DNA of 43,750 nucleotides from Prevotella sp. (GTDB taxonomy: Bacteria; Bacteroidota; Bacteroidia; Bacteroidales; Bacteroidaceae), in assembly GCA_017413085.1 (NCBI GenBank), contig JAFPVC010000040.1:1-43750 (forward strand), in the 5' to 3' direction. The notes under the pieces were generated by a model. It was not told where the DNA came from and made no database searches. It saw only the letters and a program-made list of their open reading frames with translations. Of this stretch, positions 4,506 to 43,276 are shown piece by piece (positions within the stretch are counted from its first letter, which is position 1; every line of letters begins with the position of its first letter). The position numbers were made by a program, and so were the translations under genes.

Positions 4506-4555
4506 AATAATAAACACAGCCATAATCTTTAATGATTATGGCTGTGTTTATTATT
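4506..4555. terminator. 22-bp perfect bidirectional terminator hairpin
   Basis: A perfect 22-bp stem (4506-4527 with 4534-4555) is closed by TTTAAT. It sits between convergent genes, with a weaker 9-bp GGTGG hairpin just before it (about 4475-4507). Long T-runs are absent, but stem arms rich in TTTATTATT could serve both strands. Confidence 0.8.
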
Positions 4556-15081: not shown

Positions 15082-15129
15082 AAAAGAAAGACGCAGACCA
15101 CTATTCAGAATGGCCTGCGTCTTTCTTTT
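15082..15129. terminator. Convergent terminator shared by yicC and the GtrA-family gene
   Basis: A perfect 15-bp stem (15082-15096 with 15115-15129) surrounds an 18-nt loop. The right arm lies inside the last codons of the minus-strand GtrA-family gene, so the hairpin is partly coding. T-runs or A-runs at both edges suit termination in both directions. Confidence 0.8.
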
Positions 15130-27725: not shown

Positions 27726-27770
27726 AAAAGGCGCAAATTGCAACTGTGCCAAATGCAATTTGCGCCTTTT
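27726..27770. terminator. 17-bp perfect hairpin
   Basis: The arms at 27726-27742 and 27754-27770 are perfect inverted repeats around an 11-nt loop. The right arm ends in TTTT, so it may end transcription of the carboxylesterase, although it lies 180 nt beyond its stop. It is also the left edge of a larger palindrome-rich element. Confidence 0.75.
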
Positions 27771-27874: not shown

Positions 27875-27914
27875 AACTTTACATTTTTAACATTGTTCTA
27901 TTTCTCCAATTTGA

Positions 27915-28022
27915 AGATTCGCATTTATTGGCTGCAAACGTCTATCAGGCGTAGTTCTGATGGACTATGATGTGGTTATAGACAAACAGGCTTTTGAAGG
28001 TTGTGACTTGATAAAGGAATAA
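27915..28022 (+). pseudogene. 3' remnant of a BspA-like leucine-rich-repeat gene
   Basis: Thirty-five codons plus stop remain in frame and match the last residues of the intact gene ending at 30569 (RFAFIGCK..., VLM, DKQAFEGCDLIK) with a few substitutions. Homology stops at the upstream side, where an in-frame TGA precedes it, and there is no start or signal peptide. It is the tail of a lost earlier copy of the cassette, and its downstream intergenic DNA is also duplicated. Confidence 0.85.
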
Positions 28023-28064
28023 TATTGATTGCAAAATGTCGCATTGTTTTCCACAAATTGTTTC

Positions 28065-28084
28065 ACTGGCAGAATAATGCCTGT
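28065..28084. promoter_or_regulatory. Conserved hairpin, copy 1
   Basis: ACTGGCA/TGCCTGT (7 positions, one T-T mismatch) around GAATAA, located between the remnant and cassette A. It corresponds base for base to the hairpin at 30611-30630, with a compensatory G-C to A-T change. Confidence 0.6.
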
Positions 28085-28114
28085 TTCATGAGCTATTATT
28101 TCTGAATAATTGTT

Positions 28115-28122
28115 TACTTTTG
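28115..28122 (+). promoter_or_regulatory. -7 promoter box for lipoprotein A
   Basis: TACTTTTG matches TAnnTTTG, 51 nt before the start codon. The matching position in cassette B (30661-30668) reads TACCCTTG, one base off consensus. Confidence 0.5.
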
Positions 28123-28173
28123 CACCTAAATATGACTATGTAGTTTTCAAATAAATTTCACATAAACTAAACA

Positions 28174-28842
28174 ATGAAAAAAATCAATTTTATAGCAGCA
28201 TGTCTGCTTGTTGCCTGTGGCATTATTGTAATCAGCTGTAATCAAGACGGAGATTATAACGAGGATTTCTATGGTCTGGATGTCTTGTATCACACTTGTG
28301 CGACCAAAAGTACCTTGGAGGACATGGCGTTTATTCAGAATGAGGACGATGTTATTAAGCACAACAAAAAATACCCAAAGGAAGACGATTGTTGTTATCT
28401 AACCGTTATAATGGAGCAATGGATAGCATCAAAAGGAAACTTTTACTTTGGAAGCGGATGCGAAGAAACAGCAGAGCAACATTATTATAAATTAAAAGAA
28501 GACTGGAGAGAGAAAAACCCTGGTTGGAAAGAGGGCGATTCCGTTAAGAATAAACAATTCATGAATTATGCAGGTGATATGTTCGGCTCTGAAGAGATTT
28601 TTGCTGAAACAGGCACTGATGCTGAAAAATATTTTAGTGACAAAAGGCAAAGAAAAAATGTTGCTGTAATATATGTAGAAAAAAATGAACCTGGACGTGG
28701 TGTGGTTGGTCATATTGCTTACGTAACCAATTGCACGGAGAACAAGATTTACTTTAAAGGTGAACCTTTCTGTGGGAAAAATTCTATGAAAATAAGTGGT
28801 GAAAATGGATGGAAAATAGTTGGAGTAATAAACAAAAGATAA
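28174..28842 (+). CDS. Cassette A lipoprotein with possible cysteine-peptidase-like domain
   Basis: This 222-residue lipoprotein has a signal peptide with lipobox VISC, so Cys22 would be lipidated. Residues 1-37 are nearly identical to the lipoprotein at 30745, and beyond residue 37 the two cannot be aligned by eye. The mature part has a Cys pair at 73-74 (DDCCYLTVIMEQW) and a C-terminal GHIAYVTNCTENKIYF with His180. This is the order and type of setting seen in papain-fold, C39-like or NlpC-like peptidases, but the identity is a guess and no family was firmly recognised. It would sit on the outer membrane, possibly outside the cell. It is followed 35 nt later by a BspA-like gene. Codon use is AT-rich compared with the flanks. 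Confidence 0.75.
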   Translation: MKKINFIAACLLVACGIIVISCNQDGDYNEDFYGLDVLYHTCATKSTLEDMAFIQNEDDVIKHNKKYPKEDDCCYLTVIMEQWIASKGNFYFGSGCEETAEQHYYKLKEDWREKNPGWKEGDSVKNKQFMNYAGDMFGSEEIFAETGTDAEKYFSDKRQRKNVAVIYVEKNEPGRGVVGHIAYVTNCTENKIYFKGEPFCGKNSMKISGENGWKIVGVINKR

Positions 28843-28877
28843 TGATTTAATGAATGATGGTTTGAAATATATGAAAT

Positions 28878-30569
28878 ATGTATAAACATCTTTTACTCAT
28901 ACTAATTGCTCTATGCTCATCCGGAATGGCTTCGGCTGATTCTGAATTTGTGCAATCTGGCATAGCATATAAAGTAGTTGCAGACAACATAGTTGATGTC
29001 ATTGCACAAAAGGACAAGAAATGCTGTTACCAAACATTTAAGGACTCCATACTGACAGTGCCTTCATGCATCATTCACGAAAACAAGGAATACAAAGTGA
29101 AGTGCATTGAGAAAACTGCATTTTCCACTTGGTGTGGAATGAAAAGAGTTGTCATAAGCAATGGTATTGAGGAGATACAAGACAAGGCTTTTGCAGGATG
29201 TGCGAACCTTGAATCCGTGTATATACCCTCCAGCGTGAAGTCAATCGGAACAGAGAATATATTTGCTTTTTGTTTCAGTCTGACAGAGATAACTGTAGAT
29301 GACGGCAATACAGTCTTTGACAGTCGCAATGGATGCAATGCCATAATAAAGACTGTTGACAATTCTCTTTTGTGTGCTTGCAAGTCAACACTTATCCCCT
29401 CAACTGTTGAAAAAATAAACAGTTACGCTTATACAGGGCTTCAGGTAACATCTATAGGCATCCCCAACGGCGTAAAGACAATCAGCGAGTATGCCGTATG
29501 CCAATGTAAGCAACTTGAGCAGATTACCATATCTTCGTCTGTAGAATCTATTGCACCACGGGCATTCGACCAATGTGACAATGTAAAATCTGTGTCGGTT
29601 GATAAGAATAATAAATATTACGATTCAAGAAACAACTGCAATGCCATAATAGAAGACAAAGAAATGCTTATCTGGGGATGCAGCACGACAAAGATTCCTT
29701 TTGGGGTTGTCGAAATCGGAGAGTCTGCATTCGCATGGTGTGGGACATTGCGTGAAATAACAATACCTGAGGGCGTGGAATATATAAACAGAGATGCTTT
29801 TACAGGTTGTTCTGCACTCAAGGTTGTGAAACTACCCTCCACTCTTGTGGGATTTGAAGGTTTCTCGCATTTCATCTATTGTACCTCGCTGGACAGCATA
29901 TATATACCGCAAAATGTAAAGAAAATCCCATCCGACATTTTTGCTGGATGCACATCGTTGACAAGAATTATTGTTGACAAGAGAAATGTGTGGTATGATT
30001 CACGCAATGATTGTAATGCAATAATCCATAGTTCTGACAACAGTTTAATCGCAGGGGGCAAGGGCTCCACTATTGTGGAAGGAGTCAGGTCTATAGCAGA
30101 GAACGCATTTCTGATGAGCGGAGTAACATCAATACATATTCCAGCGTCTGTAGAATACATTGATTCTACTGCATTTCGCAAGAGCGAGAATTGTAAGGCA
30201 ATCACTGTTGACAGAGGAAATGCAAAATACAAGTCGGACGGTTCCAATTCTATTGTTGAAAGAGCCACAAACAAAATGATTCTCGCTTGTTCGACTACCA
30301 AGATTCTTCCTAAAGTATCAAGTATAGGGGGATATGCATACCTTAATACTTCTGCAAATGTAATCCTTCCATCGGGAATAAAGGAAATAGGAAATCGTGC
30401 TTTTGCAGATTGTAAAGACCTGTGTTCCATTTTCATTCCATCAACGGTAAAACACATAGGCAGATTTGCATTTATTGGTTGCAAATATCTGTCTGACGTT
30501 GTTCTGATGGGTAATGATCTGGTTATAGACAAACAAGCTTTTGAAGGTTGTGATTTGATAAAGAAGTAA
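28878..30569 (+). CDS. Cassette A BspA-like leucine-rich-repeat surface protein
   Basis: This 563-residue protein has a signal peptide (about 1-20, SSGMASA). Nearly all the rest is BspA/LRR_5 repeats: units such as IPSSVKSIGTENIFAFC alternate with the insert type (V/Y)(F/Y)DSRNxCNAII....L..AC..T.IP, seen three clear times plus a degenerate one. BspA proteins of oral and gut Bacteroidales are surface proteins that bind host or matrix components, and the ligand here is unknown. It ends with a repeat and has no recognised sorting domain. Its last 35 codons match the remnant at 27915. It probably forms one transcript with the lipoprotein 35 nt upstream. Confidence 0.85.
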   Translation: MYKHLLLILIALCSSGMASADSEFVQSGIAYKVVADNIVDVIAQKDKKCCYQTFKDSILTVPSCIIHENKEYKVKCIEKTAFSTWCGMKRVVISNGIEEIQDKAFAGCANLESVYIPSSVKSIGTENIFAFCFSLTEITVDDGNTVFDSRNGCNAIIKTVDNSLLCACKSTLIPSTVEKINSYAYTGLQVTSIGIPNGVKTISEYAVCQCKQLEQITISSSVESIAPRAFDQCDNVKSVSVDKNNKYYDSRNNCNAIIEDKEMLIWGCSTTKIPFGVVEIGESAFAWCGTLREITIPEGVEYINRDAFTGCSALKVVKLPSTLVGFEGFSHFIYCTSLDSIYIPQNVKKIPSDIFAGCTSLTRIIVDKRNVWYDSRNDCNAIIHSSDNSLIAGGKGSTIVEGVRSIAENAFLMSGVTSIHIPASVEYIDSTAFRKSENCKAITVDRGNAKYKSDGSNSIVERATNKMILACSTTKILPKVSSIGGYAYLNTSANVILPSGIKEIGNRAFADCKDLCSIFIPSTVKHIGRFAFIGCKYLSDVVLMGNDLVIDKQAFEGCDLIKK

Positions 30570-30610
30570 TATTGATTGCAAAAAGTCGCATTTTTTCCGC
30601 AAATTGTTTC

Positions 30611-30630
30611 ACAGACAAAATGATGTCTGT
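30611..30630. promoter_or_regulatory. Conserved hairpin, copy 2
   Basis: A perfect 7-bp stem ACAGACA/TGTCTGT around AAATGA, 41 nt after the leucine-rich-repeat stop and 30 nt before the putative promoter of lipoprotein B. It aligns with the copy at 28065-28084; pairing is kept despite base changes. Confidence 0.6.
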
Positions 30631-30744
30631 TTCGCAAGCTATTATTTCTGAGATAATGTTTACCCTTGTACTTAAAATATACACATGACTATGTAGTTTT
30701 CAAAAAACATTTCACAGAACAAACAATATCACATAAACCAAACA

Positions 30745-31470
30745 ATGAAAAAAATCAATTTTATAGCAGCATGTCTGCTTGTTGCCTGTGGCATTATTGT
30801 AATCAGTTGTAATCAAGATGGGGATTATGACGAGGACTTCTATGGTCTGGATGTAATTCGGTACACGTCTGTTGCCAAAACCGCGCAATTTGAGCCAACT
30901 GGGGCAACTCAAAAATTTGGCAACGGTACAAACGATTATGATGATGGTACGACTGTACCAACGTATAAAGATGAATGCACTTTATGGTCACTTGTCACCG
31001 TTGCTGTAAACAAAAAAACTAAATTTGAAGTAACAAATAAAAAAGGAGATACAGAATACAATAGTATAGGTCATGGTTGTACTGCATCATATGCCTATGA
31101 ATATGTCAAAAGTTTGGCGCAAGGACAAACGTGGAGAGAAGATGGCGAGGAGCATGTCTATACAAATGGTGCTATGCCACCTTCAATTGCTGCAAACATT
31201 GCCCGTGAAGCGGGGATTATGGAAGGAATAACACGCCATTTTAATACATACCAAGAATTGTATGATTTCATCTCAGATCCTTCTTGGGCAAATGATCATC
31301 CCAGTGGAACATATATGATTAGCAATGACAAACTCAAACACACATGTGTTTGCAATGGAATAAAGAAAGGTGAAGTAAAACTTCAACGCAATAGAGACAA
31401 TATGGAATCACAACCTAAATGTTTCAATACAGATGACAACTCCAATGACGGCTTCGTGCTTATTTATTAA
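30745..31470 (+). CDS. Cassette B lipoprotein with possible cysteine-peptidase-like domain
   Basis: This 241-residue lipoprotein has the same first 37 residues as the cassette A lipoprotein, with one substitution (Asn29 to Asp) and the same lipidated Cys22. The first 62 nt of the two genes are identical. From residue 38 the sequence is different. DECTLWSLVTVAV (Cys78), GHGCTASYAYEYV and KLKHTCVCNGIKKGEVKL (His199) give a Cys...His order that would suit a papain-fold peptidase, with 121 residues between them against about 106 in A. This assignment is tentative. It heads an AT-rich, tightly packed gene group: BspA-like protein 17 nt on, then Wzy-like and transglutaminase-like genes by 4-nt overlaps. 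Confidence 0.75.
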   Translation: MKKINFIAACLLVACGIIVISCNQDGDYDEDFYGLDVIRYTSVAKTAQFEPTGATQKFGNGTNDYDDGTTVPTYKDECTLWSLVTVAVNKKTKFEVTNKKGDTEYNSIGHGCTASYAYEYVKSLAQGQTWREDGEEHVYTNGAMPPSIAANIAREAGIMEGITRHFNTYQELYDFISDPSWANDHPSGTYMISNDKLKHTCVCNGIKKGEVKLQRNRDNMESQPKCFNTDDNSNDGFVLIY

Positions 31471-31487
31471 CTAAATTATACAACAAA

Positions 31488-33032
31488 ATGAAAAAACACA
31501 TATATATAATTTTGAAATGTCTGTTAGCTCTTTTGTTGTGTCCACTTTCTCAAATGTATGGTCGTACTTTTACTGAAAATGGATTTACATATTTAATACA
31601 AAGAGATAGTATAAGTGTTTCGCTCATAGGTTATCAGCCGTCAGTTATTGTTGAGAACAAACCTTTGCTTCATATTCCTGCTTCTGTAGTTCATGAAGGA
31701 CAAACATATCAAGTAAATTATATAGGACCGGATGCGCTTAATGGTTTAGTATCCATAGAGAGAATTGTGGTTGAAGAAGGTATAAAAGATATAGGCAATC
31801 GTGCTTTTGAATGTTGCACAAGTTTAAAATCCATTTATTTGCCAGCATCATTAGACGGTGTTGCTCATGGTATCTTTGGCAGTTGTTACAATTTGAGAGA
31901 GATTGTAGTAGATCCACGCAATGAGTGTTTGGATTCTCGTGACAATTGCAATGCCATCATAGACTCTGATGATGACAAACTTCTTGCAGCGTGTCCTGTT
32001 ACAAAAATCCCCAACTCTGTCAAGTCAATTGCAAAACGTGCATTTTACCATTGCAACACAATGGAAGAACTTGATATTCCAGAGGGGGTGGAGACGATAG
32101 AAAGCTTTGCTTTCAATGACTGCAGCCAACTTAAGCGCGTGTCATTACCACAATCACTTCACAAGATAGAAGAAAGTGCTTTTTATAGATGCAATTCACT
32201 GGAATCTGTATTTATTCCAAAGAATGTCTGTGACATAGAGGAAGCTAATATATTTCCGCAATGTTACAACCTGGCATCCATCGTTGTGGATGATGCCAAC
32301 CCAATATATGACTCACGTTCCAACTGCAATGGAATTGTCAGAAAGTCAGACTCCACTCTCATCGCTACATGCAAGGCAACGGTTATTCCTGGGAATGTAA
32401 AAAGGCTCGGCCATAAATGTTTTCTTGGAACCAGAATGTTCTCTGTCAGAATACCCAAATCCGTAATTGAGATAGCGAAGATGGCCTTCTTCGGATGTGA
32501 TGAGTTAGACTCTCTCAACGTTGATGCTGATAATCCTGTTTACATGTCTCCCAGTGGAATAAATGCAATTCTGACGAAAGACGGAAAGACGCTTGTTTTG
32601 GGAGGATGTACCACAGATATTCCCAATGGTATAGAAACCATCGGAGCTTATGCGTTTGCAGGCAGATACCCTAAAACCATGCTGAAGATACCAGAGGGAG
32701 TGAAATCAATAGGAGAGGGAGCCTTTAGGGATTGCAGTTACATCAGTGACATTGTTATTCCCACTTCGGTTATCGATATCGGCATGTCTGCCTTTGAAAA
32801 ATGTTTTTTTCTCAAATCCGTACAATTGCTCTCACCAGTGGAATACATCAACCCCTATACTTTTTCTGGCTGTGTCAGACTTACAGTTGTTGATATTCCA
32901 GAAGGTGTAAAAGAAATATGCAATTGGGCATTTGACAACTGTACAGGTTTGAAATATGTTCATCTGCCATCTTCTATTGAAACAGTGGAAAGGGAAGCAT
33001 TCGCTAACTGCCCTGTGTCCGAAAAGAAATGA
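31488..33032 (+). CDS. Cassette B BspA-like leucine-rich-repeat surface protein
   Basis: This 514-residue secreted protein has a signal peptide (about 1-25, LCPLSQMYG). It is built of BspA/LRR_5 repeats (IPEGVETIESFAFNDC and similar) with two clear DSRxNCN(A/G)I inserts and one degenerate insert, as in cassette A but strongly diverged. The most C-terminal repeats end CPVSEKK. It is expected at the cell surface as a binding protein; the ligand is unknown. Its TGA stop overlaps the ATG of the next gene (ATGA), tying it to an O-antigen-ligase-like membrane protein. The homologous cassette A gene lacks such downstream partners. Confidence 0.85.
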   Translation: MKKHIYIILKCLLALLLCPLSQMYGRTFTENGFTYLIQRDSISVSLIGYQPSVIVENKPLLHIPASVVHEGQTYQVNYIGPDALNGLVSIERIVVEEGIKDIGNRAFECCTSLKSIYLPASLDGVAHGIFGSCYNLREIVVDPRNECLDSRDNCNAIIDSDDDKLLAACPVTKIPNSVKSIAKRAFYHCNTMEELDIPEGVETIESFAFNDCSQLKRVSLPQSLHKIEESAFYRCNSLESVFIPKNVCDIEEANIFPQCYNLASIVVDDANPIYDSRSNCNGIVRKSDSTLIATCKATVIPGNVKRLGHKCFLGTRMFSVRIPKSVIEIAKMAFFGCDELDSLNVDADNPVYMSPSGINAILTKDGKTLVLGGCTTDIPNGIETIGAYAFAGRYPKTMLKIPEGVKSIGEGAFRDCSYISDIVIPTSVIDIGMSAFEKCFFLKSVQLLSPVEYINPYTFSGCVRLTVVDIPEGVKEICNWAFDNCTGLKYVHLPSSIETVEREAFANCPVSEKK

Positions 33033-34582
33033 AGAACATACATGTTCCAACATTAATAATCCTTGGGGGAAGTATCTTTTGTTTCTCCACGCAATATTTT
33101 GAACTAGCGAATACTATTCAGCGTTGCTGGACGGGTGGATTTGCGATTTTATTACTGATATATTACTTCGCAATGGTGTGCCTGGGGAAATGTGTCACCT
33201 TACCAAAAGACCAGATTATGAAGACGTTGTGTATACTTGGAATATTGGAGATTATCTTTTCCATAATACAACTTTTCGGGCTTTTACCAGACAATTACAA
33301 ATATGCACATTTCTCAGGAAGTCTGAACAATCCCGCCATATTTGGGATGTTGCTGTCATTCTGCGTACCTGTAAGCGTATATTTCCTCAAGTACACGGAT
33401 GGAAAGGAAAAGACATTGTGGAAGTTTCTATTTGTCATATTTGCAGTGTTCATAATCTTGTCTGACTCGCGTACTGCAATACTTGCATCTGCATGTGGTG
33501 CTTTGTCGGTATTGTTAATGATGGAGAAGAACTTATTTAGGGAGAAACTAAAAAAGAGGAAATTCAAGTTTCTCACATATATATTCATTGTGCTCACATT
33601 TGTATTTTTATATTTCTATAAACGCGATTCAGCAGAAGGGCGATTTCTAATTTGGAATGTCTGTGTAGAAATGATAAAAGAAAAACCATTATGGGGATGG
33701 GGAACGGATGGATTTTACGCCCATTACATGAATTATCAAGCGGAATATCTTAAATCACATGCTGGTTCTCCCTTTGCATTACTGGCTGACGAGACACAAA
33801 ATCCATTCAATGAATTTTTGCATATCGCAATTGTATGTGGCGTTCCTTGTTGCTTGTTCTTTTTCGGAATTATAATTGGAACAATATGGTATCTATGTAA
33901 CAGGCGTATAGAACATTGTGAGGTATTACTGGGACTGACCTTGGTATTTGTGGTATGGTGCATGTTTTGTTATCCGCTGACCACTCCATTTGTATGGATA
34001 ATACTTTCTTTTATTGCATTATCGACGATTAGCCGTGAGACTTTACCTAAACCATGTCATGCTGTTATATTCGTTATGTGCTTGTTTTGTTTGTTTCTAA
34101 TGGTAAAGAATGGATATGCGAATATTAGGAGAGTGTTTTTACAGGAATACGCAATGAATAATCATGATATACAGGTAATGGACAAGTACGAATCAATGTA
34201 TAGAGAAATGTCATCAAATGGTTTGTTTCTCTATAATTACGCTGCTATGCTTCATCTTAATGGAGATTACGAAAAGAGTATCATAGTTTTTAAAGAATGT
34301 TCTGCATATATCAACGATTACAACATGATGCTCCTAATGGGGGATAATTACCAACAAATGGATATTCCTGATTCTGCGATTGTGTATTATAAAAGGGCAA
34401 GTGAGATGATTCCCAACAGATTTCTGCCGCTGTATTATCAGATGGCTGTATATCAGGAACAAGGAAATAATAATAAAGCGAAGGAGATAGCAGAAATCAT
34501 CGTCCACAAAGAAAACAAGATTAAGAAATCTAAGACAGTTAATGAAATAATTATAAGGGCAAACGAATGTTTGAGGGAATGA
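33029..34582 (+). CDS. O-antigen ligase/Wzy-like polytopic protein with C-terminal TPRs
   Basis: This 517-residue protein has about ten to twelve hydrophobic membrane segments over residues 1-370. It has the Wzy_C/O-antigen ligase motifs GSLNNPAIFGMLLSF, LSDSRTAILA and the periplasmic-loop segment RFLIWNVCVEMIKEKPLWGWGTDGF. Residues about 395-510 form TPR-like helices (NYAAMLHLNGDYEKSIIVFKEC, DSAIVYYKRASEMIPNRFLPLYYQMAVY). The family joins or polymerises lipid-linked glycans in the periplasm, including glycan transfer to lipid A or to proteins. No other glycan synthesis gene is adjacent, so a ligase acting on a glycan made elsewhere is more likely than a dedicated polymerase. Start and stop each overlap neighbours by 4 nt, so it is surely co-expressed with them. 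Confidence 0.85.
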   Translation: MKNIHVPTLIILGGSIFCFSTQYFELANTIQRCWTGGFAILLLIYYFAMVCLGKCVTLPKDQIMKTLCILGILEIIFSIIQLFGLLPDNYKYAHFSGSLNNPAIFGMLLSFCVPVSVYFLKYTDGKEKTLWKFLFVIFAVFIILSDSRTAILASACGALSVLLMMEKNLFREKLKKRKFKFLTYIFIVLTFVFLYFYKRDSAEGRFLIWNVCVEMIKEKPLWGWGTDGFYAHYMNYQAEYLKSHAGSPFALLADETQNPFNEFLHIAIVCGVPCCLFFFGIIIGTIWYLCNRRIEHCEVLLGLTLVFVVWCMFCYPLTTPFVWIILSFIALSTISRETLPKPCHAVIFVMCLFCLFLMVKNGYANIRRVFLQEYAMNNHDIQVMDKYESMYREMSSNGLFLYNYAAMLHLNGDYEKSIIVFKECSAYINDYNMMLLMGDNYQQMDIPDSAIVYYKRASEMIPNRFLPLYYQMAVYQEQGNNNKAKEIAEIIVHKENKIKKSKTVNEIIIRANECLRE

Positions 34583-37401
34583 TTATGAATTTCAAAACTA
34601 TTTTATACAGCATCTCATTGTTTTTTGCGATTTATTCAGTTCTGTCATGTAACAAGGGACTTGACAAGGCCTTGGAGATATCTGGTGACAACAGGGGGGA
34701 GTTGGAGAAAGTTCTCAGGCATTTCGAGAACGACCCCGACCGGTTGAAATACAGAGCGGCTAAATTCCTCATAGAGAATATGCCTGGGCAATACTACAAT
34801 GCAGGACAGGGTGTAGAATACAGCGATTCCCTGTTTCTGGCGGCAGCAGGTGAATCGCAGAACATCCGCACGAAATGGTTCAACAACCACGCCTCCAGAA
34901 TTTACAGTCTGCCCTCGGAAATTGTTTATGACCTGACGACCCTCAAGGCCGACTTCCTGATAAAAGCTATTGAGGAGGCATGTGATGTGTGGAACGCTGC
35001 GCCATGGCATGAGGAATATGACGAAGAAATATTCTTTGAATACGTGCTGCCATACAGGCTCAACCACGAACCGCCGAGCGACTGGAGGCAGACCATAGAA
35101 GAGGAATACCCAATGCTTACAAAAGAATACGTCATCACGCGTCGCGGTTTCCAGATGGAAGCCGAGCAGGGATACTGCATCGGATGCCAGACCAAGGAAT
35201 ATATTGGTGCAGCAGGGCATAAGGCGGAAATGATGTTCAAGGGAAAATCCTCGGTGTCATTCACGATAGACTCAGAGCGGCAAACACACAAACGCCTCAT
35301 TGTGAAATATTCCACCAACGCACACCAAATGGAAGCCGTGGTGATGGTAAACGGAGTGTTTTTCGACACGCTAAGGCTGGCACCGACAAGAAACATAGAG
35401 TCATTTGCAGAGAAATGGTTCAACAAGGCGTTGCCGATAAAGAAAGGCAGAAACATCGTAAAAGTGTCCAACGTCACAGACTCCCTCTGCCTCGACTACA
35501 TTCAGTTTGGAGCAGTGGAAGATTTCAAAGCAGAGGACATAAAGGACTTCTCTGGTGACTATTACAGCATCATCAACAAGAAAACACAACACTGCATCAC
35601 ATTCGACACACTGAAGACTTCTATACAGAACATTATAGACTTGAAAAAGCTTGACACAAACGACAACACGCAGTTGCTGAGACTTGACTATGCAGGCTAT
35701 TCGCTCTGGAAAATAGGCTGTTTCACCAACAAAAGCAATGCTACAGACATGTGTCTTGAAATGGAATTCGGTACGCCACGCACTTTAAGCACAGACTCTA
35801 TCATCACTGCGGCAAAGTATATAAAACGGCCATTCCAGCAGTGGATTTTCTTTCCTGTGGGTGGCGATTACTATAGAATCATGAACAAGCACACGGGAAT
35901 GTTCCTTGACTCGGAAACCGACGCGGCGACGGGAAGGGAATACCTTGTGCAAAATCCTTATTCTGAGAAGGACAGTCAGATATGGAAGTTGAACAAGCGC
36001 GGAAGAAATCCATACAGCGACACTTTCTTCAAAGTCAACTCCGCATTCTCCGAGGCAATGCGGGTGTTCGACCTTACGCATCAGTTTGAGTATTACATCT
36101 ATGACAGTAAGTTTCAAACAAATGCAATATTATTATACAAAGCAAAAAGCGGAAAGTGTGCTGACGAAACAAGTTTCTCTATATATCTTTCCAGATATTT
36201 GGGCATACCCGCTGCATATGATTTTACCCCACATTGGGGCAATCGTAGCAACAGCCACTCATGGAGTGTATTGATAGGAAAAGATGGAAAAGCCGTACCA
36301 TTCTTCATGGGTAACGTGCCTGGGGATACGGTGCATTATTTCTACTCCTACATAAAGCCCAAAGTGTTCCGCTATCGCTATAGTGTAAACAAGAAACTCA
36401 TAAATGACTTAAAACACGAAGAATCCGTACCAGAATTGTTTGTTAATAATACAAGGATAACCGACGTTACGGATGAATACTGTAAGACATCAGATGTGGT
36501 ACGCCCTGTACCCAAGGAAATACAAAACAGGAAAGTGGCATACATTTGCGTCTTCGACAACAGAAACTGGGTGCCCGTGGATTATGGCATGATAAAGGGT
36601 GGCAAGGTCAGATTCAAATCTATGGGTCGCGGCATCATGTATATGGCAGGACTGTTCGTGAATGGGACAATTGTACCATTCGGAAACCCTTTCCTTATCA
36701 CCAACGATGGAGATATAAAAGACATTGATGTGAACGAGAAGGAAACCGTACGAATGAAACTGCTGAGGAAATACCCATTCATGGGGGCGCAGGACTTCTT
36801 CAACAGCAGAATGAACGGAGGACAGTTCCAAGCATCCAACTATGAGGATTTCTCAGACAGTACAGTGTTATATGTACACAAAGGCATCACTAACGGCAAC
36901 TGGTATGACATCCCTATCAGAACCCAACGGCCACACAAGTTCCTGCGGTATATAGGTGGCAGGGGTTCTTTCTGCAACATCAACGAACTGGAGTTCTATG
37001 ATTCTACGGGCAAGAAGATAGAAGGCACTATTATAGGGACAGAGGGAGAAGACTGGGGAAAGAAAGAAAAAGTATTTGACGGCGACATTCTCACTGGTTT
37101 CGGTGGTCTAAGTCCTGACGGAAACTGGGTGGGTCTGGCACTGAAAATCCCATGTATGGTGTCAAGAATTCGATACATAGGCAGAAATGATGGAAACGGA
37201 ATAGAAATGAATGATAGCTACGAGTTGCTGTATTGGAGTTCGGCACGAGGCTGGGTGAAGCATGGTAACAAGGTAGCAAAGGACAATGTCATCTATTTTG
37301 AGAATGTTCCAGCTGGAGGATTATATATTCTAAGGGATTTAACAAAAGGCGTGGAGGAACGCATTTTCACTTACGAAAACGGTAAGCAAGTATGGTGGTA
37401 G
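34579..37401 (+). CDS. Large lipoprotein with lectin-like, transglutaminase-like and discoidin-like domains
   Basis: This lipoprotein is about 940 residues long. An earlier ATG exists at 34567, but 34579 gives a 4-nt ATGA overlap with the preceding stop; 34585, behind GAGGG, is also possible. The signal has lipobox SVLSC. An N-terminal helical domain is followed by a CBM-like beta domain (about 190-310) and a beta-trefoil, ricin-like region (about 327-474) with DYYSIINKKT, QQWIFFPV and SQIWKLN. A transglutaminase-like core follows, with Cys527 (GKCADE), His560 (NSHSW) and candidate Asp569. The C-terminus (about 785-900) resembles an F5/8-type discoidin domain (FLRYIGGRGSFCNINELEFYD). It may be a sugar-directed surface enzyme that cuts or crosslinks peptide bonds; the reaction is not known. 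Confidence 0.8.
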   Translation: MIMNFKTILYSISLFFAIYSVLSCNKGLDKALEISGDNRGELEKVLRHFENDPDRLKYRAAKFLIENMPGQYYNAGQGVEYSDSLFLAAAGESQNIRTKWFNNHASRIYSLPSEIVYDLTTLKADFLIKAIEEACDVWNAAPWHEEYDEEIFFEYVLPYRLNHEPPSDWRQTIEEEYPMLTKEYVITRRGFQMEAEQGYCIGCQTKEYIGAAGHKAEMMFKGKSSVSFTIDSERQTHKRLIVKYSTNAHQMEAVVMVNGVFFDTLRLAPTRNIESFAEKWFNKALPIKKGRNIVKVSNVTDSLCLDYIQFGAVEDFKAEDIKDFSGDYYSIINKKTQHCITFDTLKTSIQNIIDLKKLDTNDNTQLLRLDYAGYSLWKIGCFTNKSNATDMCLEMEFGTPRTLSTDSIITAAKYIKRPFQQWIFFPVGGDYYRIMNKHTGMFLDSETDAATGREYLVQNPYSEKDSQIWKLNKRGRNPYSDTFFKVNSAFSEAMRVFDLTHQFEYYIYDSKFQTNAILLYKAKSGKCADETSFSIYLSRYLGIPAAYDFTPHWGNRSNSHSWSVLIGKDGKAVPFFMGNVPGDTVHYFYSYIKPKVFRYRYSVNKKLINDLKHEESVPELFVNNTRITDVTDEYCKTSDVVRPVPKEIQNRKVAYICVFDNRNWVPVDYGMIKGGKVRFKSMGRGIMYMAGLFVNGTIVPFGNPFLITNDGDIKDIDVNEKETVRMKLLRKYPFMGAQDFFNSRMNGGQFQASNYEDFSDSTVLYVHKGITNGNWYDIPIRTQRPHKFLRYIGGRGSFCNINELEFYDSTGKKIEGTIIGTEGEDWGKKEKVFDGDILTGFGGLSPDGNWVGLALKIPCMVSRIRYIGRNDGNGIEMNDSYELLYWSSARGWVKHGNKVAKDNVIYFENVPAGGLYILRDLTKGVEERIFTYENGKQVWW

Positions 37402-37476: not shown

Positions 37477-37531
37477 GTATCATACCACCCTATATAATAA
37501 TGTCGGAGCTTTGGTATGATACTTTTTTTTT
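37477..37531 (+). terminator. Terminator-like inverted repeat before the xylan operon
   Basis: An 11-bp perfect inverted repeat (37477-37487 and 37512-37522, GTATCATACCA) with a 24-nt loop is followed by a run of T (37524-37531). The right arm overlaps the -33 TTTG of the next promoter, so it could also be an operator. Confidence 0.65.
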
Positions 37532-37568: not shown

Positions 37569-39692
37569 ATGAAGATAAAATCAGCATTATTTCTATTGGG
37601 TATGCCGGCAATCGTGTCGGCACAGAACCCGATTATCAGGGATCAGTTTACAGCTGACCCCACCGCTCGAGTTTTTAATAACAAGGTTTATGTTTACCCC
37701 TCACATGACATCTTTCCGCCTGACGGACAGAGGCAGGACTGGTTCTGCATGGAAGACTACCATGTGTTCTCGTCGGAGAACCTCACCGAATGGACAGACC
37801 ACGGAATGATTCTGTCACAGCTGACCGTGCCTTGGGGCAATCCGGCTGGCTACTCCATGTGGGCACCTGACTGTGTGTATAAAAACGGGAAGTATTATTT
37901 CTACTACCCTAATGCTCCGAAAAGCGGCAGAGGCTTTGCCATCGGCGTAGCCACGGCCGACAGTCCGGAAGGACCATTCACCTGCCAACCGGAACCCATT
38001 AAAGGCGTTTCGGGCATAGACCCATGCGTGCTCGTTGACGACGACGGCTCTGCCTATATCTACTGGAGCGGCATGGGCATCAGAGGTGCTAAACTGAAGG
38101 ATAACATGCTGGAACTTGACGGCGAACTGCAGGAGATGAAGATGCCTCGTCGTGAGGGACAGCCAGAGATGCCGCCGATGAAAGTGGGCGGGCAGGTGAT
38201 GGAAGGCCTGCCCGACGGTTTCAAGGAAGGACCGTTTGCCTTCAAGCGCGGCGACTGGTATTACCTCACCTTCCCATGGGTGCGCGGCGACAACAGCAAT
38301 GGAAAGAACCCTACGGAAACACTGGCATACGCCATGTCTAAATCGCCGCTGGGTCCTTGGGATTTCAAGGGCATCATCATGGCTGAGCACGAAAACCACT
38401 GCTGGACAAATCACCACAGCCTCATAGAATACAAGGGACAGTGGTATATCTTCTACCACCACAACGTGTTCTCTCCAAATGACGACAAGCGCCGTTCCGC
38501 ACAGATAGAGAAGGTGTTCTTCAATGCTGACGGCACCATCCAGGAGGTAAAGGAAACAATGCGTGGCGTGGGTATCAACAGCGCAACGGAGAAAATTGAG
38601 ATAGACCGTTACAGCAGTGCCAGTGCCGGCGTGACTACACAGTTGATAGATACGGTGAACACATTCCGCAGCCTTGAGGCCACATTGCCGCAGAAAGGCA
38701 GCTGGATAAAATACAATGATGTGGACTTCAGCTGTATTACCGACGGTTACATCGTTGTAAACGCCAAGGCAGCAGGAAATACTAAGTTCGCAATACGGGA
38801 AAAGAGTGCCAACGGCAAGGTGATTGCCCAGTTCGACATGAAGGTGAAGCCTGATGCAGGAGACCAGTCGCCATTCCGCCGCGACCTCAGCAACCAGTGG
38901 CTTACGCAATCGGCTGTACTGGACTACACTCCGAAGGGAGTGACTGACTTGGTCGTAACATGCGAAGGCGATGCAAGCGTAAGCATTGACTGGGCACAGT
39001 TCAAGAACCGTGCGAAGTATTTCTCACCAGTCACCACCGCCAGTGCACAGCCTGACGATGAAGGCTTCATACGTCGTTGGCTGGTATTGGAACCCATAGA
39101 CAAGCCGAACCGTGGCAATACCGTGTTTACGGATTCATACCTGCGTGAGCACTTCAACATGGAGTATTTCAAAGGACAACAGACCATCGTACCGAAGGAC
39201 GGCCAGAAGGTCAAGGTGTCGTTCAAGCAGGAGCAGGTGCCGGCGGGCTTCGGCCGTGGCAATCAGGCAGAGCCAGCCAAGCCAGAGATTAAGACTGTCA
39301 ACCAGACCCTGACATGGCATGCGCTTGACAGCGAGAACATGAATGTGAAACTCTTCCGCTTTGCCGAGAAGTGGAGCAACAAGGTGTATGGCGTGCTCTT
39401 CTGGACCGTCACCATCATTGACTGTGATGAAGACATCGAGAACGTGCGCCTGGCCGTAGGTTCCAACTCTGCATCCATGTGGTGGCTCAACGGCAAGGAG
39501 GCGCTTCTGATGTCAGGCGACCGCCGCATGGTGAAGGACGATGCCATGTCGCCGCGCCTTACACTGAAGAAGGGACGTAACATCCTGCGCGGTGCCATCA
39601 TCAACGGCCCCGGCATGAGTGACTTCTGCGTACGCTTCCTCGACGAGAAGGGCAACCCTGTTAAGAATTATCAGATTAAAACCAACAATTAA
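37569..39692 (+). CDS. Secreted GH43 glycosidase with CBM6-like module
   Basis: This 707-residue protein has a signal peptide (1-18, AIVSAQ). The GH43 five-bladed propeller is at about 20-320, with the likely catalytic base in FTADPTARVFN, the pKa-tuning Asp in GIDPCVLVDDDGSAYIYWSG and the acid in GFKEGPFAFKRGDWYYLTFP. It is followed by a CBM6-like beta-sandwich (about 340-480, ending VSIDWAQFK) and a C-terminal module of about 220 residues (RRWLVLEPIDKPNRG...) that probably binds substrate or packs on the catalytic domain. Xylosidase or arabinofuranosidase activity on xylan side chains is likely from its operon with GH67, but subfamily was not determined. The next gene starts 14 nt later. 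Confidence 0.87.
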   Translation: MKIKSALFLLGMPAIVSAQNPIIRDQFTADPTARVFNNKVYVYPSHDIFPPDGQRQDWFCMEDYHVFSSENLTEWTDHGMILSQLTVPWGNPAGYSMWAPDCVYKNGKYYFYYPNAPKSGRGFAIGVATADSPEGPFTCQPEPIKGVSGIDPCVLVDDDGSAYIYWSGMGIRGAKLKDNMLELDGELQEMKMPRREGQPEMPPMKVGGQVMEGLPDGFKEGPFAFKRGDWYYLTFPWVRGDNSNGKNPTETLAYAMSKSPLGPWDFKGIIMAEHENHCWTNHHSLIEYKGQWYIFYHHNVFSPNDDKRRSAQIEKVFFNADGTIQEVKETMRGVGINSATEKIEIDRYSSASAGVTTQLIDTVNTFRSLEATLPQKGSWIKYNDVDFSCITDGYIVVNAKAAGNTKFAIREKSANGKVIAQFDMKVKPDAGDQSPFRRDLSNQWLTQSAVLDYTPKGVTDLVVTCEGDASVSIDWAQFKNRAKYFSPVTTASAQPDDEGFIRRWLVLEPIDKPNRGNTVFTDSYLREHFNMEYFKGQQTIVPKDGQKVKVSFKQEQVPAGFGRGNQAEPAKPEIKTVNQTLTWHALDSENMNVKLFRFAEKWSNKVYGVLFWTVTIIDCDEDIENVRLAVGSNSASMWWLNGKEALLMSGDRRMVKDDAMSPRLTLKKGRNILRGAIINGPGMSDFCVRFLDEKGNPVKNYQIKTNN

Positions 39693-39706
39693 GATTATCA
39701 AGAGTC

Positions 39707-41185
39707 ATGATTAAATATACAAAAGAGAGACGCAGACTGCTTTGCGCAGCATTCTTCACTCTTCATTCTTCACTCCTCACTGTTCAGGCACAGGTTGGCG
39801 CACCTTACATACATGACCCCTCAACCATTGCAGAATGTGAAGGAAAATACTACACCTTCGGCACCGGTGGCGGAGGTCTGATTTCAGAAGACGGCTGGAC
39901 ATGGAACAGCGGTGCCGACCGTCCCGGCGGTGGTGCTGCACCTGACGTCCTGAAGATTGGCGACCGTTACCTTTGCATCTACGGTGCCACTGGCGGCGGT
40001 CTCGGCGGTGGCCATGCCGGACGCATCCTCACGATGTGGAACAAGACACTCGACCCGAAGTCGCCTGATTTCAAGTGGACCGAGGCTGTGGAGGTATGCG
40101 CCTCTGACGGCATGGAAGACCAGGATGCCATTGACCCCGGATTGCTCCTTGACCCTACCACGGGCAGACTATGGGTAAGCTATGGCACATACTTCGGCAC
40201 CATACGTCTTATAGAAATTGACCCAAAGACTGGTTTCCGTGTCAGCGGCAACAAGGAGAAAGACATCGCCATCGACTGTGAGGCTACTGACCTGATATAC
40301 CGTGACGGATGGTATTATCTGCTCGGCACCCACGGCACATGCTGCGACGGTGTTAATTCCACGTATAATATAGTGGTAGGCCGCTCACGCAGCGTGCAGG
40401 GCCCTTACCTTGACAATGTGGGTCGCGACATGTATCACGGCGGTGGCAAGATGGTGATAGCCGCCGGTGACCGTGTGTGTGGCCCCGGACACTTCGGACG
40501 CACCATAATCGACGAAGGCGTTGAAATAATGTCATGCCACTATGAAGCTGATTTCGAAGTCAGTGGCCGCAGCGTTCTTGGCATACGCCCACTGCTGTGG
40601 AAGAACGGCTGGCCTGTGGCAGGCGACAAGTTCAAGGGCGGCACATTTGAAATAGAGAGTGAGCGCCGTGGCTATGCACTGGAACTTGCCGTCGATTTTG
40701 TGCGTATGAAACAGGAACGTCAGGGCTGGTTCAACCGTGAGCAGATGCAGCAGCCTGTCAAGCCTATCGCCAACCAGACACTGGCTGAGGTTATCGACAC
40801 ATGGCCAAAGGGCGACATCCCTGCACGCATAGGCGACTATATGTTCCGTCCGCATCAGCGTTGGACTGTGACTTCTGCTGAGGGCAAGGGCGGCTACTTG
40901 GGTGGCCCTTACTTCAAGATTGTCATCGAGGGAACAGAGCGTGCTCTCGCTGCCACGGCAGACAAGGAAGTTACCACCGTACCTGCATACACTGGAGCCG
41001 ACGAACAGTTATGGCGCATTGAGCAACTGACTGACGGCACCTTCCGCATCATGCCCAAGACAATACCGGGCATAGAAGGCACGAACACTCGCTATTGCCT
41101 CTATTCGGCTGGCGACTCCACACCTACCCTCGCTGAATATGACTTCAACAGCGACAACTCAAAGTGGAATTTCCGCAACCACTAA
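39707..41185 (+). CDS. Secreted GH43-like glycosidase
   Basis: This 492-residue protein has a propeller with GAPYIHDPSTIAECEGKYYTFGT (probable catalytic Asp), DQDAIDPGLLLDPTTGRLWVSYG and CEATDLIYRDGWYYLLGTHGTCC (probable acid), close to arabinan-type GH43 enzymes. A C-terminal region (about 320-490) is beta-rich and includes FRPHQRWTV and LWRIEQLTDGTFRIMPK, which resembles a small carbohydrate-binding trefoil. Its signal peptide hydrophobic core (FFTLHSSLLTV) is encoded by five 7-bp repeats, which is unusual. Activity on arabinose side chains of xylan is suggested by context. The stop lies 7 nt before the GH67 start. Confidence 0.85.
   Translation: MIKYTKERRRLLCAAFFTLHSSLLTVQAQVGAPYIHDPSTIAECEGKYYTFGTGGGGLISEDGWTWNSGADRPGGGAAPDVLKIGDRYLCIYGATGGGLGGGHAGRILTMWNKTLDPKSPDFKWTEAVEVCASDGMEDQDAIDPGLLLDPTTGRLWVSYGTYFGTIRLIEIDPKTGFRVSGNKEKDIAIDCEATDLIYRDGWYYLLGTHGTCCDGVNSTYNIVVGRSRSVQGPYLDNVGRDMYHGGGKMVIAAGDRVCGPGHFGRTIIDEGVEIMSCHYEADFEVSGRSVLGIRPLLWKNGWPVAGDKFKGGTFEIESERRGYALELAVDFVRMKQERQGWFNREQMQQPVKPIANQTLAEVIDTWPKGDIPARIGDYMFRPHQRWTVTSAEGKGGYLGGPYFKIVIEGTERALAATADKEVTTVPAYTGADEQLWRIEQLTDGTFRIMPKTIPGIEGTNTRYCLYSAGDSTPTLAEYDFNSDNSKWNFRNH
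39752..39786. repeat. Five 7-bp repeats inside a signal peptide
   Basis: TTCTTCA, CTCTTCA, TTCTTCA, CTCCTCA, CTGTTCA follow each other in the reading frame of the GH43 gene and encode FFTLHSSLLTVQ. The 14-base unit differs from the array at 1-78 mainly by A to C, which turns the TAA words into TCA and so removes stop codons. Confidence 0.85.
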
Positions 41186-41192
41186 ACTTTTG

Positions 41193-43228: not shown

Positions 43229-43276
43229 TTTTACCCCCAAATCAGTCTAATGACCGATTTGGGGGTAAAATTTTTT
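43229..43276 (+). terminator. Rho-independent terminator of the xylan operon
   Basis: A perfect 15-bp stem (43229-43243 with 43256-43270), one mismatch, three further pairs and a TAAT loop are followed by TTTTTT. It is the clearest terminator in the window. Confidence 0.93.

What the first reader, a model, noticed from the sequence alone, without database searches (positions are those of the whole stretch)
30745..37401. Four-gene overlapping unit: lipoprotein, BspA protein, Wzy-TPR ligase, lectin-transglutaminase lipoprotein
The genes are joined by a 17-nt gap and two ATGA overlaps, so they are almost certainly one functional unit. It combines an adhesin, a glycan ligase and a surface lipoprotein with sugar-binding and transglutaminase-like parts. 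A plausible idea is a surface system in which the LRR protein is displayed, glycosylated and covalently modified. This is a strong candidate for an undescribed system in the window.
Basis: partly seen in the sequence, partly recalled or inferred. Interest (0 to 1): 0.75.

Follow-up and report, generated by a model that had tools for sequence, protein, structure and literature searches.

The report
Probable protein-decorating operon of Bacteroidota
A Prevotella-like bacterium carries an operon pairing a probable sugar-attaching membrane enzyme and a sugar-binding transglutaminase-like surface protein with small tagged lipoproteins; the enzyme pair recurs in many related bacteria beside different secreted proteins, which suggests an uncharacterised way of decorating them.

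Summary
The genes, overlaps and domains are as described. The unit is real but wider and differently composed: an earlier lipoprotein+BspA pair (28174-30569) precedes it, and a strong hairpin with a T run closes it. The Wzy-TPR + transglutaminase-lectin (TG) pair is widespread in Bacteroidota (Wzy-TPR in 25 of 33 fully flanked TG loci). BspA is not a general partner (4 of 80 loci), though one distant MAG keeps the same four genes with both ATGA overlaps. Commoner neighbours are signal peptidase I (25 of 80), NVEALA-like peptides (23, loose pattern) and lipoproteins with a shared acidic leader (9), the window's kind. On the Wzy tree the signal-peptidase and leader contexts are separated by one change; on the TG tree they need five, at least four forced (one-clade test p 9e-77). 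So Wzy is inherited with the cargo type and TG is shared. TG has three predicted carbohydrate-binding modules and an invariant Cys/His. Best reading: Wzy-TPR glycosylates its cargo and TG acts on the product. No glycosylation was shown, the His of PglL/WaaL is absent, and only half of the independent leader hits lie by TG or Wzy. No paper on NVEALA or this pairing was found in the held library.

The parts
27900..28067 (+). degenerate 3' end of a third BspA gene (remnant of an earlier array member)
   Evidence: LRR_5 match E 5.4e-4, under the family's cut-off, with 3 stops; overlaps the 83% DNA repeat
27915..28283 (+). repeat copy 1: BspA 3' end, intergenic region, lipoprotein signal peptide and leader
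   Evidence: 83% identical over 395 alignment columns to 30462-30854
28174..28842 (+). leader-bearing lipoprotein 1 (222 aa), C/H-type cargo (by eye)
   Evidence: leader HMM 74 bits, a member of the model's alignment; no Pfam family
28878..30569 (+). BspA LRR protein 1 (563 aa); best match among the 7 BspA compared is that of L040 (50% over 554 aa)
   Evidence: LRR_5 E 4e-76
30462..30854 (+). repeat copy 2: BspA 3' end, intergenic region, leader
30745..31470 (+). leader-bearing lipoprotein 2 (241 aa), C/H-type cargo (by eye)
   Evidence: leader HMM 68 bits, a member of the model's alignment; first 46 aa 83% identical to lipoprotein 1, little similarity after it
31488..33032 (+). BspA LRR protein 2 (514 aa), Sec-like N-terminus; ends after the LRRs
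   Evidence: LRR_5 E 5e-79
33029..34582 (+). Wzy-TPR: membrane enzyme of the O-antigen ligase/oligosaccharyltransferase family with C-terminal TPRs; R148 and R205 kept, canonical His replaced
   Evidence: Wzy_C E 6.5e-18; 51-sequence alignment; PDB 9rmk E 2e-8 and 7tpg E 1e-7
34579..37401 (+). TG-lectin lipoprotein (940 aa): helical N-terminus, CBM35-like (187-313), ricin trefoil (322-476), transglutaminase-like core (Cys527/His560), C-terminal module like 2yb7/5g56
37477..37531 (+). probable intrinsic terminator closing the unit
   Evidence: hairpin -18.3 kcal/mol, z -5.75, then T9; its loop is outside the limits, which did not list it

Best explanation
A dedicated protein-decoration module. 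SHOWN: (1) Wzy-TPR and the TG-lectin lipoprotein are a conserved pair in Bacteroidota that recurs beside small secreted proteins. (2) Wzy-TPR lineages follow the context (leader-bearing lipoproteins versus signal peptidase I, often with NVEALA peptides), while the TG protein is exchanged between the two. (3) TG has an invariant Cys and His and three predicted carbohydrate-binding modules. INFERRED: Wzy-TPR, in the inner membrane with its TPRs in the periplasm, recognises its own cargo through the leader or cargo body and transfers a lipid-linked glycan to it; in this locus the cargo is the leader lipoprotein and perhaps the BspA beside it. The outer-membrane TG lipoprotein, whichever cargo is used, binds the common glycan and then cleaves or transamidates the glycoprotein, maturing or anchoring it at the surface. 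BspA is one of several accessory passengers.
For: Wzy-TPR in 25 of 33 TG loci with at least 6 kb on both sides and in 47 of 80 in all, many cut by contig ends, against 3 Wzy_C genes over cut-off (5 matches) in the whole 2.83 Mb own genome. Wzy tree: 22 signal-peptidase-context and 11 leader-context rows split by one change (shuffled mean 9.4, 0 of 500; 20 rows in neither group not counted). TG tree: 5 changes, at least 4 forced by starred branches (38 rows); in a 22-row tree AU rejects a single leader-context clade, p 9e-77. The 4-gene order and overlaps are conserved in L040. L179, a second locus in the L050 genome, has Wzy, leader lipoprotein and BspA without TG. Base composition breaks at the Wzy/TG boundary: lipoprotein, BspA and Wzy genes 36-40% GC, TG 45%. 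The two solved matches of the Wzy core are an oligosaccharyltransferase (9rmk) and a polysaccharide polymerase/ligase (7tpg). TG model pLDDT 90 with CBM35, trefoil and 2yb7/5g56 matches. Precedent: PglL enzymes lie beside pilin genes in 21 of 31 cases (PMC3643930, section 15).
Against: The position of the His that WaaL and PglL share (PglL H349 in PMC3643930) is F, Y, L or M in 51 of 51 by the 9rmk alignment. No Asp stands at the usual third triad position of TG. The window's own leaders end in TKS and AKT, not in the TR found in 11 of the 14 leaders aligned. The Bacteroidota motif D(S/T)X is not enriched in the lipoproteins or clearly in the BspAs. Of 8 leader hits outside the alignment (33 bits or more, reaching model column 41), only 4 lie by TG or Wzy. 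The labels used on the trees were set by me from the same loci, SPase is often the direct neighbour of Wzy, and some rows are near-duplicates (L033/L102 identical, L047/L048, L081/L083). On the TG trees the labels are still partly clustered (5 against shuffled means of 10.3 and 7.5). No substrate, glycan or processing event was observed.
Confidence: 0.42

Rival explanations
1. Leader processing: the TG-like enzyme is a cysteine peptidase that removes the leader (at the TR-like motif or at NVEALA), and Wzy-TPR modifies something else in the envelope.
For: Leader and cargo are modular: similar leaders precede unrelated cargoes. Cys and His of TG are invariant, 87 of 87. The weak solved TG match, 3isr, is named a putative cysteine protease.
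Against: TG is exchanged between loci with quite different cargo, so one specificity would have to serve both. It does not explain three carbohydrate-binding modules.
Confidence: 0.2
2. Surface polysaccharide system: Wzy-TPR is a polymerase or ligase of an exopolysaccharide or LPS, TG-lectin binds and remodels it, and the lipoproteins and BspA are surface proteins retained by it.
For: Wzy_C is shared by polymerases and ligases; match to 7tpg, named a polysaccharide polymerase/ligase; TG lectins.
Against: No flippase or sugar-transferase family appeared among the 10 neighbour proteins scanned from other loci or the genes scanned beside the window unit; such genes were not searched for systematically in the 80 loci. 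Wzy follows cargo kind.
Confidence: 0.2
3. Deglycosylation: TG is a PNGase-like amidase (TG fold plus lectin, an architecture recalled from eukaryotic PNGase) that strips glycans from the cargo.
For: TG-like core plus sugar-binding modules.
Against: PglL-type enzymes make O-linked glycans, which an amidase would not release (general knowledge); no PNGase among the rows shown, though one search shows only 50 rows and the TG core was barely tested by structure.
Confidence: 0.07
4. Chance cluster of unrelated genes in an AT-rich island.
For: Lipoprotein, BspA and Wzy genes are AT-rich compared with the window.
Against: Conserved order and overlaps in L040, conserved Wzy-TG pairing in 25 of 33, Wzy with leader lipoprotein and BspA again in L179.
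Confidence: 0.03

Closest known systems
PglL/PilO/TfpO-type O-oligosaccharyltransferases encoded beside their target pilin
   Same: Wzy_C membrane enzyme encoded next to a secreted target candidate; two conserved Arg; Gly positions equivalent to PglL G316/G318
   Different: no PglL_A/PglL_B Pfam match; catalytic His position is F/Y/L/M; TPR C-terminus; lipoproteins or NVEALA peptides instead of pilins; TG-lectin partner
Pfam NVEALA (PF14055) loci of Bacteroidales
   Same: same TG and Wzy-TPR core; by my count of the two lists, 17 of the 21 genomes with an over-cut-off NVEALA match also have TG, against 59 of 393 overall
   Different: the window's genome (79% complete) has no NVEALA match and the locus no signal peptidase I; its cargo is leader lipoproteins
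General O-glycosylation of Bacteroidota (D(S/T)X)
   Same: O-glycosylation of lipoproteins and surface proteins in the phylum (PMC10897501, abstract and passages)
   Different: that system is general and genome-wide, this one is locus-linked; motif not enriched in the cargo
T9SS/PorU sortase, which attaches cargo to A-LPS
   Same: surface enzyme joining secreted cargo and a glycan (PMC8545088, start of abstract in the listing); an analogy only
   Different: TG-like instead of gingipain-like enzyme (the latter recalled); BspA here ends after its LRRs; the Foldseek PorU row (prob 0.8, rmsd 30) is not meaningful

Membership tests
PglL/WaaL O-oligosaccharyltransferase/ligase | Wzy_C domain | tested here: met
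   E 6.5e-18, 65 bits against a cut-off of 31.7
PglL/WaaL O-oligosaccharyltransferase/ligase | Arg pair (WaaL R215, R288) | tested here: met
   R148 and R205 in 51 of 51; R205 aligns with R298 of 9rmk; R148 is matched only through a weak, sub-threshold stretch of the same alignment
PglL/WaaL O-oligosaccharyltransferase/ligase | His (WaaL H338, PglL H349) | tested here: not met
   aligned position (window F260) is F 33, Y 9, L 8, M 1 of 51
PglL/WaaL O-oligosaccharyltransferase/ligase | PglL_A/PglL_B motifs | tested here: not met
   no such family among the 11 Pfam matches at E 1 or below
PglL/WaaL O-oligosaccharyltransferase/ligase | glycan transfer to protein | not testable with these tools
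   needs glycoproteomics or an in vitro assay
Transglutaminase-like superfamily | Transglut_core match | tested here: inconclusive
   22.6 bits against a cut-off of 23, E 1.3e-4; 3isr E 0.011-0.017
Transglutaminase-like superfamily | catalytic Cys and His | tested here: met
   87 of 87 sequences of 580-1050 aa
Transglutaminase-like superfamily | third residue Asp at the usual place | tested here: inconclusive
   the usual place (recalled) is mostly F (PF.G) here; invariant D629 (940-aa numbering) lies elsewhere and the model's geometry was not inspected
BspA-type LRR protein | LRR_5 repeats | tested here: met
   E 5e-79 and 4e-76
NVEALA locus | NVEALA peptide | tested here: not met
   0 PF14055 matches in G000; that genome is 79% complete
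C39/papain-like peptidase (small lipoproteins) | fold and Cys/His | tested here: inconclusive
   Cys aligned in 7 of 7, His in 5 of 7 (not in lipoprotein 2; L045 is cut short); no Pfam match; model pLDDT 44

The most novel reading that the evidence does not exclude
The TG-lectin lipoprotein is a glycan-dependent transamidase that covalently joins leader-tagged cargo to a glycan supplied through a cargo-matched Wzy-TPR: a T9SS-independent surface anchoring route in Bacteroidota whose exchangeable part is the Wzy+cargo cassette and whose common part is the TG enzyme.
Probability: 0.12. Interest if true: 0.85.

Novelty: new variant of a known kind. Interest (0 to 1): 0.6.

Why it matters
It gives a testable role to widespread Bacteroidota gene families without a described function in the papers searched (Wzy-TPR with TG-lectin, and NVEALA peptides). 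It also provides a genetic argument, from discordant trees, for which enzyme knows the cargo. If Wzy-TPR is a cargo-specific ligase, gut commensals would have locus-encoded, swappable protein-decoration cassettes beside their general O-glycosylation system.

Tried and rejected
AlphaFold of lipoprotein 2 with 6 distant relatives gave pLDDT 44 and was not used. Pfam and NCBIfam found no convincing family for the small lipoproteins. The O-glycosylation motif count was uninformative for cargo; it is high only in TG itself (8 against 2.2, 1 of 500 shuffles; 8 proteins tested). Sigma-70-type promoter and TAnnTTTG scans were no better than chance (28 against 30.6; 31 against 27.7). The whole sequence of lipoprotein 2 is found in none of 79 other relatives, so conservation was sought in the leader.

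The leader was first thought exclusive to TG/Wzy loci. The wider search did not bear this out. Counting hits of 33 bits or more that reach model column 41 and were not in the alignment, in 37 distinct genomes, there are 8: 4 by TG or Wzy (G447:C35 twice, one of them only a 62-aa frame; G445:C105; G453:C69) and 4 elsewhere (G453:C17; G467:C41; G450:C24, with MG2-domain proteins; G441:C12, a fimbrillin-like 488-aa lipoprotein). Just under that line are one more at G450:C24 and one beside TG at G456:C27. L046 was labelled leader-bearing by a loose pattern and its leader is doubtful. The leaders of L183 and L184 score 25-30 bits but sit by TG and Wzy. The NVEALA pattern has at least one false hit (in L046). 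The leader-versus-SPase exclusion is 0 of 9 against 25 of 71 loci, p 0.051 overall and 0.015 among the 40 loci with long TG, so it is suggestive only.

The VIA-align list was filled by the CBM and trefoil domains, so the TG core fold was barely tested by structure. The name CBM62 for 2yb7/5g56 is recalled; the tables call them carbohydrate binding family 6 and CtXyl5A.

Papers: NVEALA 0 hits; transglutaminase + carbohydrate-binding module + Bacteroides + lipoprotein 0 hits; searches on O-antigen ligase, transglutaminase, propeller and SPase I returned an iron-response paper and one paper on Providencia. Searches showed nothing on this locus in their listings. The library lacks most subscription papers.
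Full report
Observation. Pfam gives LRR_5 for the 514-aa protein, Wzy_C plus weak TPRs for the 517-aa protein, and ricin lectin plus a borderline Transglut_core for the 940-aa protein; the 241-aa lipoprotein has no family. The window is one whole contig of a 79%-complete genome. A genome of the same genus, G001, holds a contig that looks the same as one named uncultured Prevotella sp. hRUG908 (G001:C123 and L102: 22,868 bases each, identical TG and Wzy rows), so the host is probably Prevotella in the wide sense.

The unit is larger than the four genes. The stretch 30462-30854 (end of BspA 1, intergenic region, lipoprotein signal and leader) is an 83% identical copy of 27915-28283. The lipoprotein+BspA pair is therefore tandemly repeated: 28174/28878 and 30745/31488, preceded by a broken BspA 3' end at 27900-28067. 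In L040, a Bacteroidaceae MAG, the order is lipoprotein, BspA, Wzy, TG with 4-nt overlaps at both later junctions. Its lipoprotein and BspA match the window's first pair best (24% over 246 aa and 50% over 554 aa). A duplication or insertion of the second pair in the window's lineage would explain this. A hairpin followed by nine T at 37477-37531 (z -5.75) separates the unit from the downstream GH43 genes. The two lipoproteins share their first 46 residues (83%) and little after: a constant leader in front of variable cargo.

Who travels with whom. Wzy-TPR is in 25 of the 33 loci with at least 6 kb on both sides and in 47 of 80 overall. Own-genome background is 3 Wzy_C genes over cut-off in 2.83 Mb. 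BspA is in 4 of 80, while the own genome has 55 LRR_5 matches in many genes. Commoner neighbours, counted over 85 loci (the 80 plus the window and 4 from the first search), are 6-bladed propellers, a lipoprotein cluster that mixes thioredoxin-like and DUF1573-like members (my reading of the sequences), TolC, periplasmic adaptor and RND pumps (the last two named by eye), and signal peptidase I. In the 80, signal peptidase I is in 25 and NVEALA-like peptides by a loose pattern in 23. In 393 Bacteroidales genomes, TG (E 1e-20 or below) occurs in 59 and NVEALA over cut-off in 21; by my count of the two lists 17 of the 21 also have TG, several on the same contig. These counts are not corrected for kinship.

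A shared leader. Fourteen lipoprotein N-termini from such loci align as lipobox Cys, an acidic stretch, then in most a YTxAE-like stretch; 11 of 14 have TR before the cargo, while the window's two have TKS and AKT and one of L051 has neither. Behind it stand unrelated cargoes: C/H-type domains by eye (window x2, L039, L040, L045, L066, L179, L180), sandwich-like domains resembling DUF3244 by eye, and others. In nine genomes the full leader separates clearly in score from ordinary lipoprotein signals (36 bits or more against under 30); 13 of those 17 high hits are alignment members. Of 8 hits not used to build the alignment (33 bits or more, to column 41, 37 distinct genomes), 4 are by TG or Wzy and 4 are not. 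One of them, L179, is a Wzy, leader lipoprotein, BspA operon without TG in a genome whose TG locus is of the other type.

Discordant trees. I labelled loci by context: leader lipoprotein or signal peptidase I. On the Wzy tree (53 rows; 11 leader, 22 SPase, 20 in neither group not counted) the two labels are separated by one change (shuffled mean 9.4, 0 of 500). Five of the unlabelled loci carry another lipoprotein type, with YSCDP-like letters near the N-terminus: four (L080, L096, L107, L118) fall on the leader side and one (L097) on the SPase side of a weakly placed root. On the TG tree (38 rows) the labels need 5 changes, at least 4 forced by starred branches; 4 on the 30 loci left after dropping those not in the Wzy tree. 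In a 22-row careful tree AU rejects one leader-context clade with p 9e-77, and L050 (SPase) is the sister of L076 (leader). So the ligase-like enzyme is inherited with the cargo kind and the TG enzyme is exchanged. The GC break between Wzy (36%) and TG (45%) in the window fits this. Caveats: labels were set by hand, L046 is doubtful, a few rows are near-duplicates, SPase is often directly beside Wzy, and the labels are still partly clustered on the TG trees (5 against shuffled means of 10.3 and 7.5).

The enzymes. The Wzy core's two solved matches are 9rmk, an oligosaccharyltransferase (E 2e-8), and 7tpg, a polysaccharide polymerase/ligase (E 1e-7). Residues R148, S201, R205, G223, G225 and G271 are invariant in 51 of 51. 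The numbering of 9rmk agrees with the Neisseria PglL residues named in PMC3643930 (section 15 read), so I take it as PglL: R205 aligns with R298 and G223/G225 with G316/G318, but the position of H349 is F 33, Y 9, L 8 or M 1 of 51. It therefore cannot be filed as a canonical PglL or WaaL. The TG model (35-sequence alignment, pLDDT 90, pTM 0.87) shows a CBM35-like domain at 187-313, a ricin-type trefoil at 322-476 (3vsf exo-galactanase lectin, ThreeFoil) and, by sequence, a C-terminal module like 2yb7/5g56, which I recall as CBM62. The catalytic Cys and His are in 87 of 87. The shorter members aligned lack the CBM35+trefoil insert.

Interpretation. The simplest account of a cargo-matched ligase and a shared, lectin-rich thiol enzyme is that the first attaches a glycan to its cargo and the second recognises that glycan and processes or couples the product. 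PglL enzymes encoded beside pilin genes (21 of 31, PMC3643930) are the precedent for the first half. The second half has no precedent that I found. Every catalytic step is inferred. Rivals (leader peptidase, polysaccharide remodelling, deglycosylation) remain open and are listed with refuting tests.

Novelty. Searches for NVEALA, for TG with carbohydrate-binding module in Bacteroides lipoproteins and for the gene set found no description in the held library. One iron-response gene table lists what looks like a B. thetaiotaomicron NVEALA-type locus, BT_0662-0669 (PMC10434189, two passages seen). I file the window locus as a new variant: a lipoprotein-leader/BspA version of a widespread, apparently undescribed locus whose ligase half resembles known gene-linked O-glycosylation.

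Noticed in passing
window 34579-37401: The TG protein itself has 8 D(S/T)(A/I/L/V/M/T) motifs against a shuffled mean of 2.2 (1 of 500 as high; 8 proteins tested), so it may be a substrate of the general O-glycosylation system.
   Followed up: partly
L032 68-1591 (G000:C50): A second copy of the long TG type in the same genome ends at 507 aa before the TG core, next to a gene that looks like lgt (by eye) and near a 920-aa BspA gene.
   Followed up: no
L031 1211-10086 (G000:C57): A third TG locus in the same genome: Wzy-TPR 672 aa, several unknown secreted proteins and a TG of about 634-646 aa without the lectin insert; the 477-aa gene between them looks like another C/H-type protein (by eye).
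   Followed up: partly
L182 2778-18685; L181 178-4573: Leader-type lipoproteins in tandem with proteins of about 900 aa, one with a weak MG2 match (L182), and one beside a 1311-aa protein with a similar C-terminus (L181), without Wzy or TG in the stretch read; the leader may serve a wider system.
   Followed up: partly
L160 8741-10207 (G441:C12): A fimbrillin-like lipoprotein (488 aa, kind judged by eye) carries an acidic stretch and TR like the leader, recalling the Arg-cleaved propeptides of type V pilins (recalled, not tested).
   Followed up: partly
L080, L096, L097, L107, L118: A different lipoprotein family (YSCDP..N.W..ENL..I..MSR.EW-like N-terminus, mostly about 220 aa) in loci with Wzy-TPR.
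   Followed up: partly
window 37569-43205: Two GH43 genes and an unexamined 688-aa ORF follow the unit, apparently a separate polysaccharide-use region starting after the terminator.
   Followed up: no
window 4506-4555, 15082-15129, 27726-27770, 43229-43270: Stretches of 42-50 nt that are 83-96% identical to their own reverse complement, possibly terminators.
   Followed up: no
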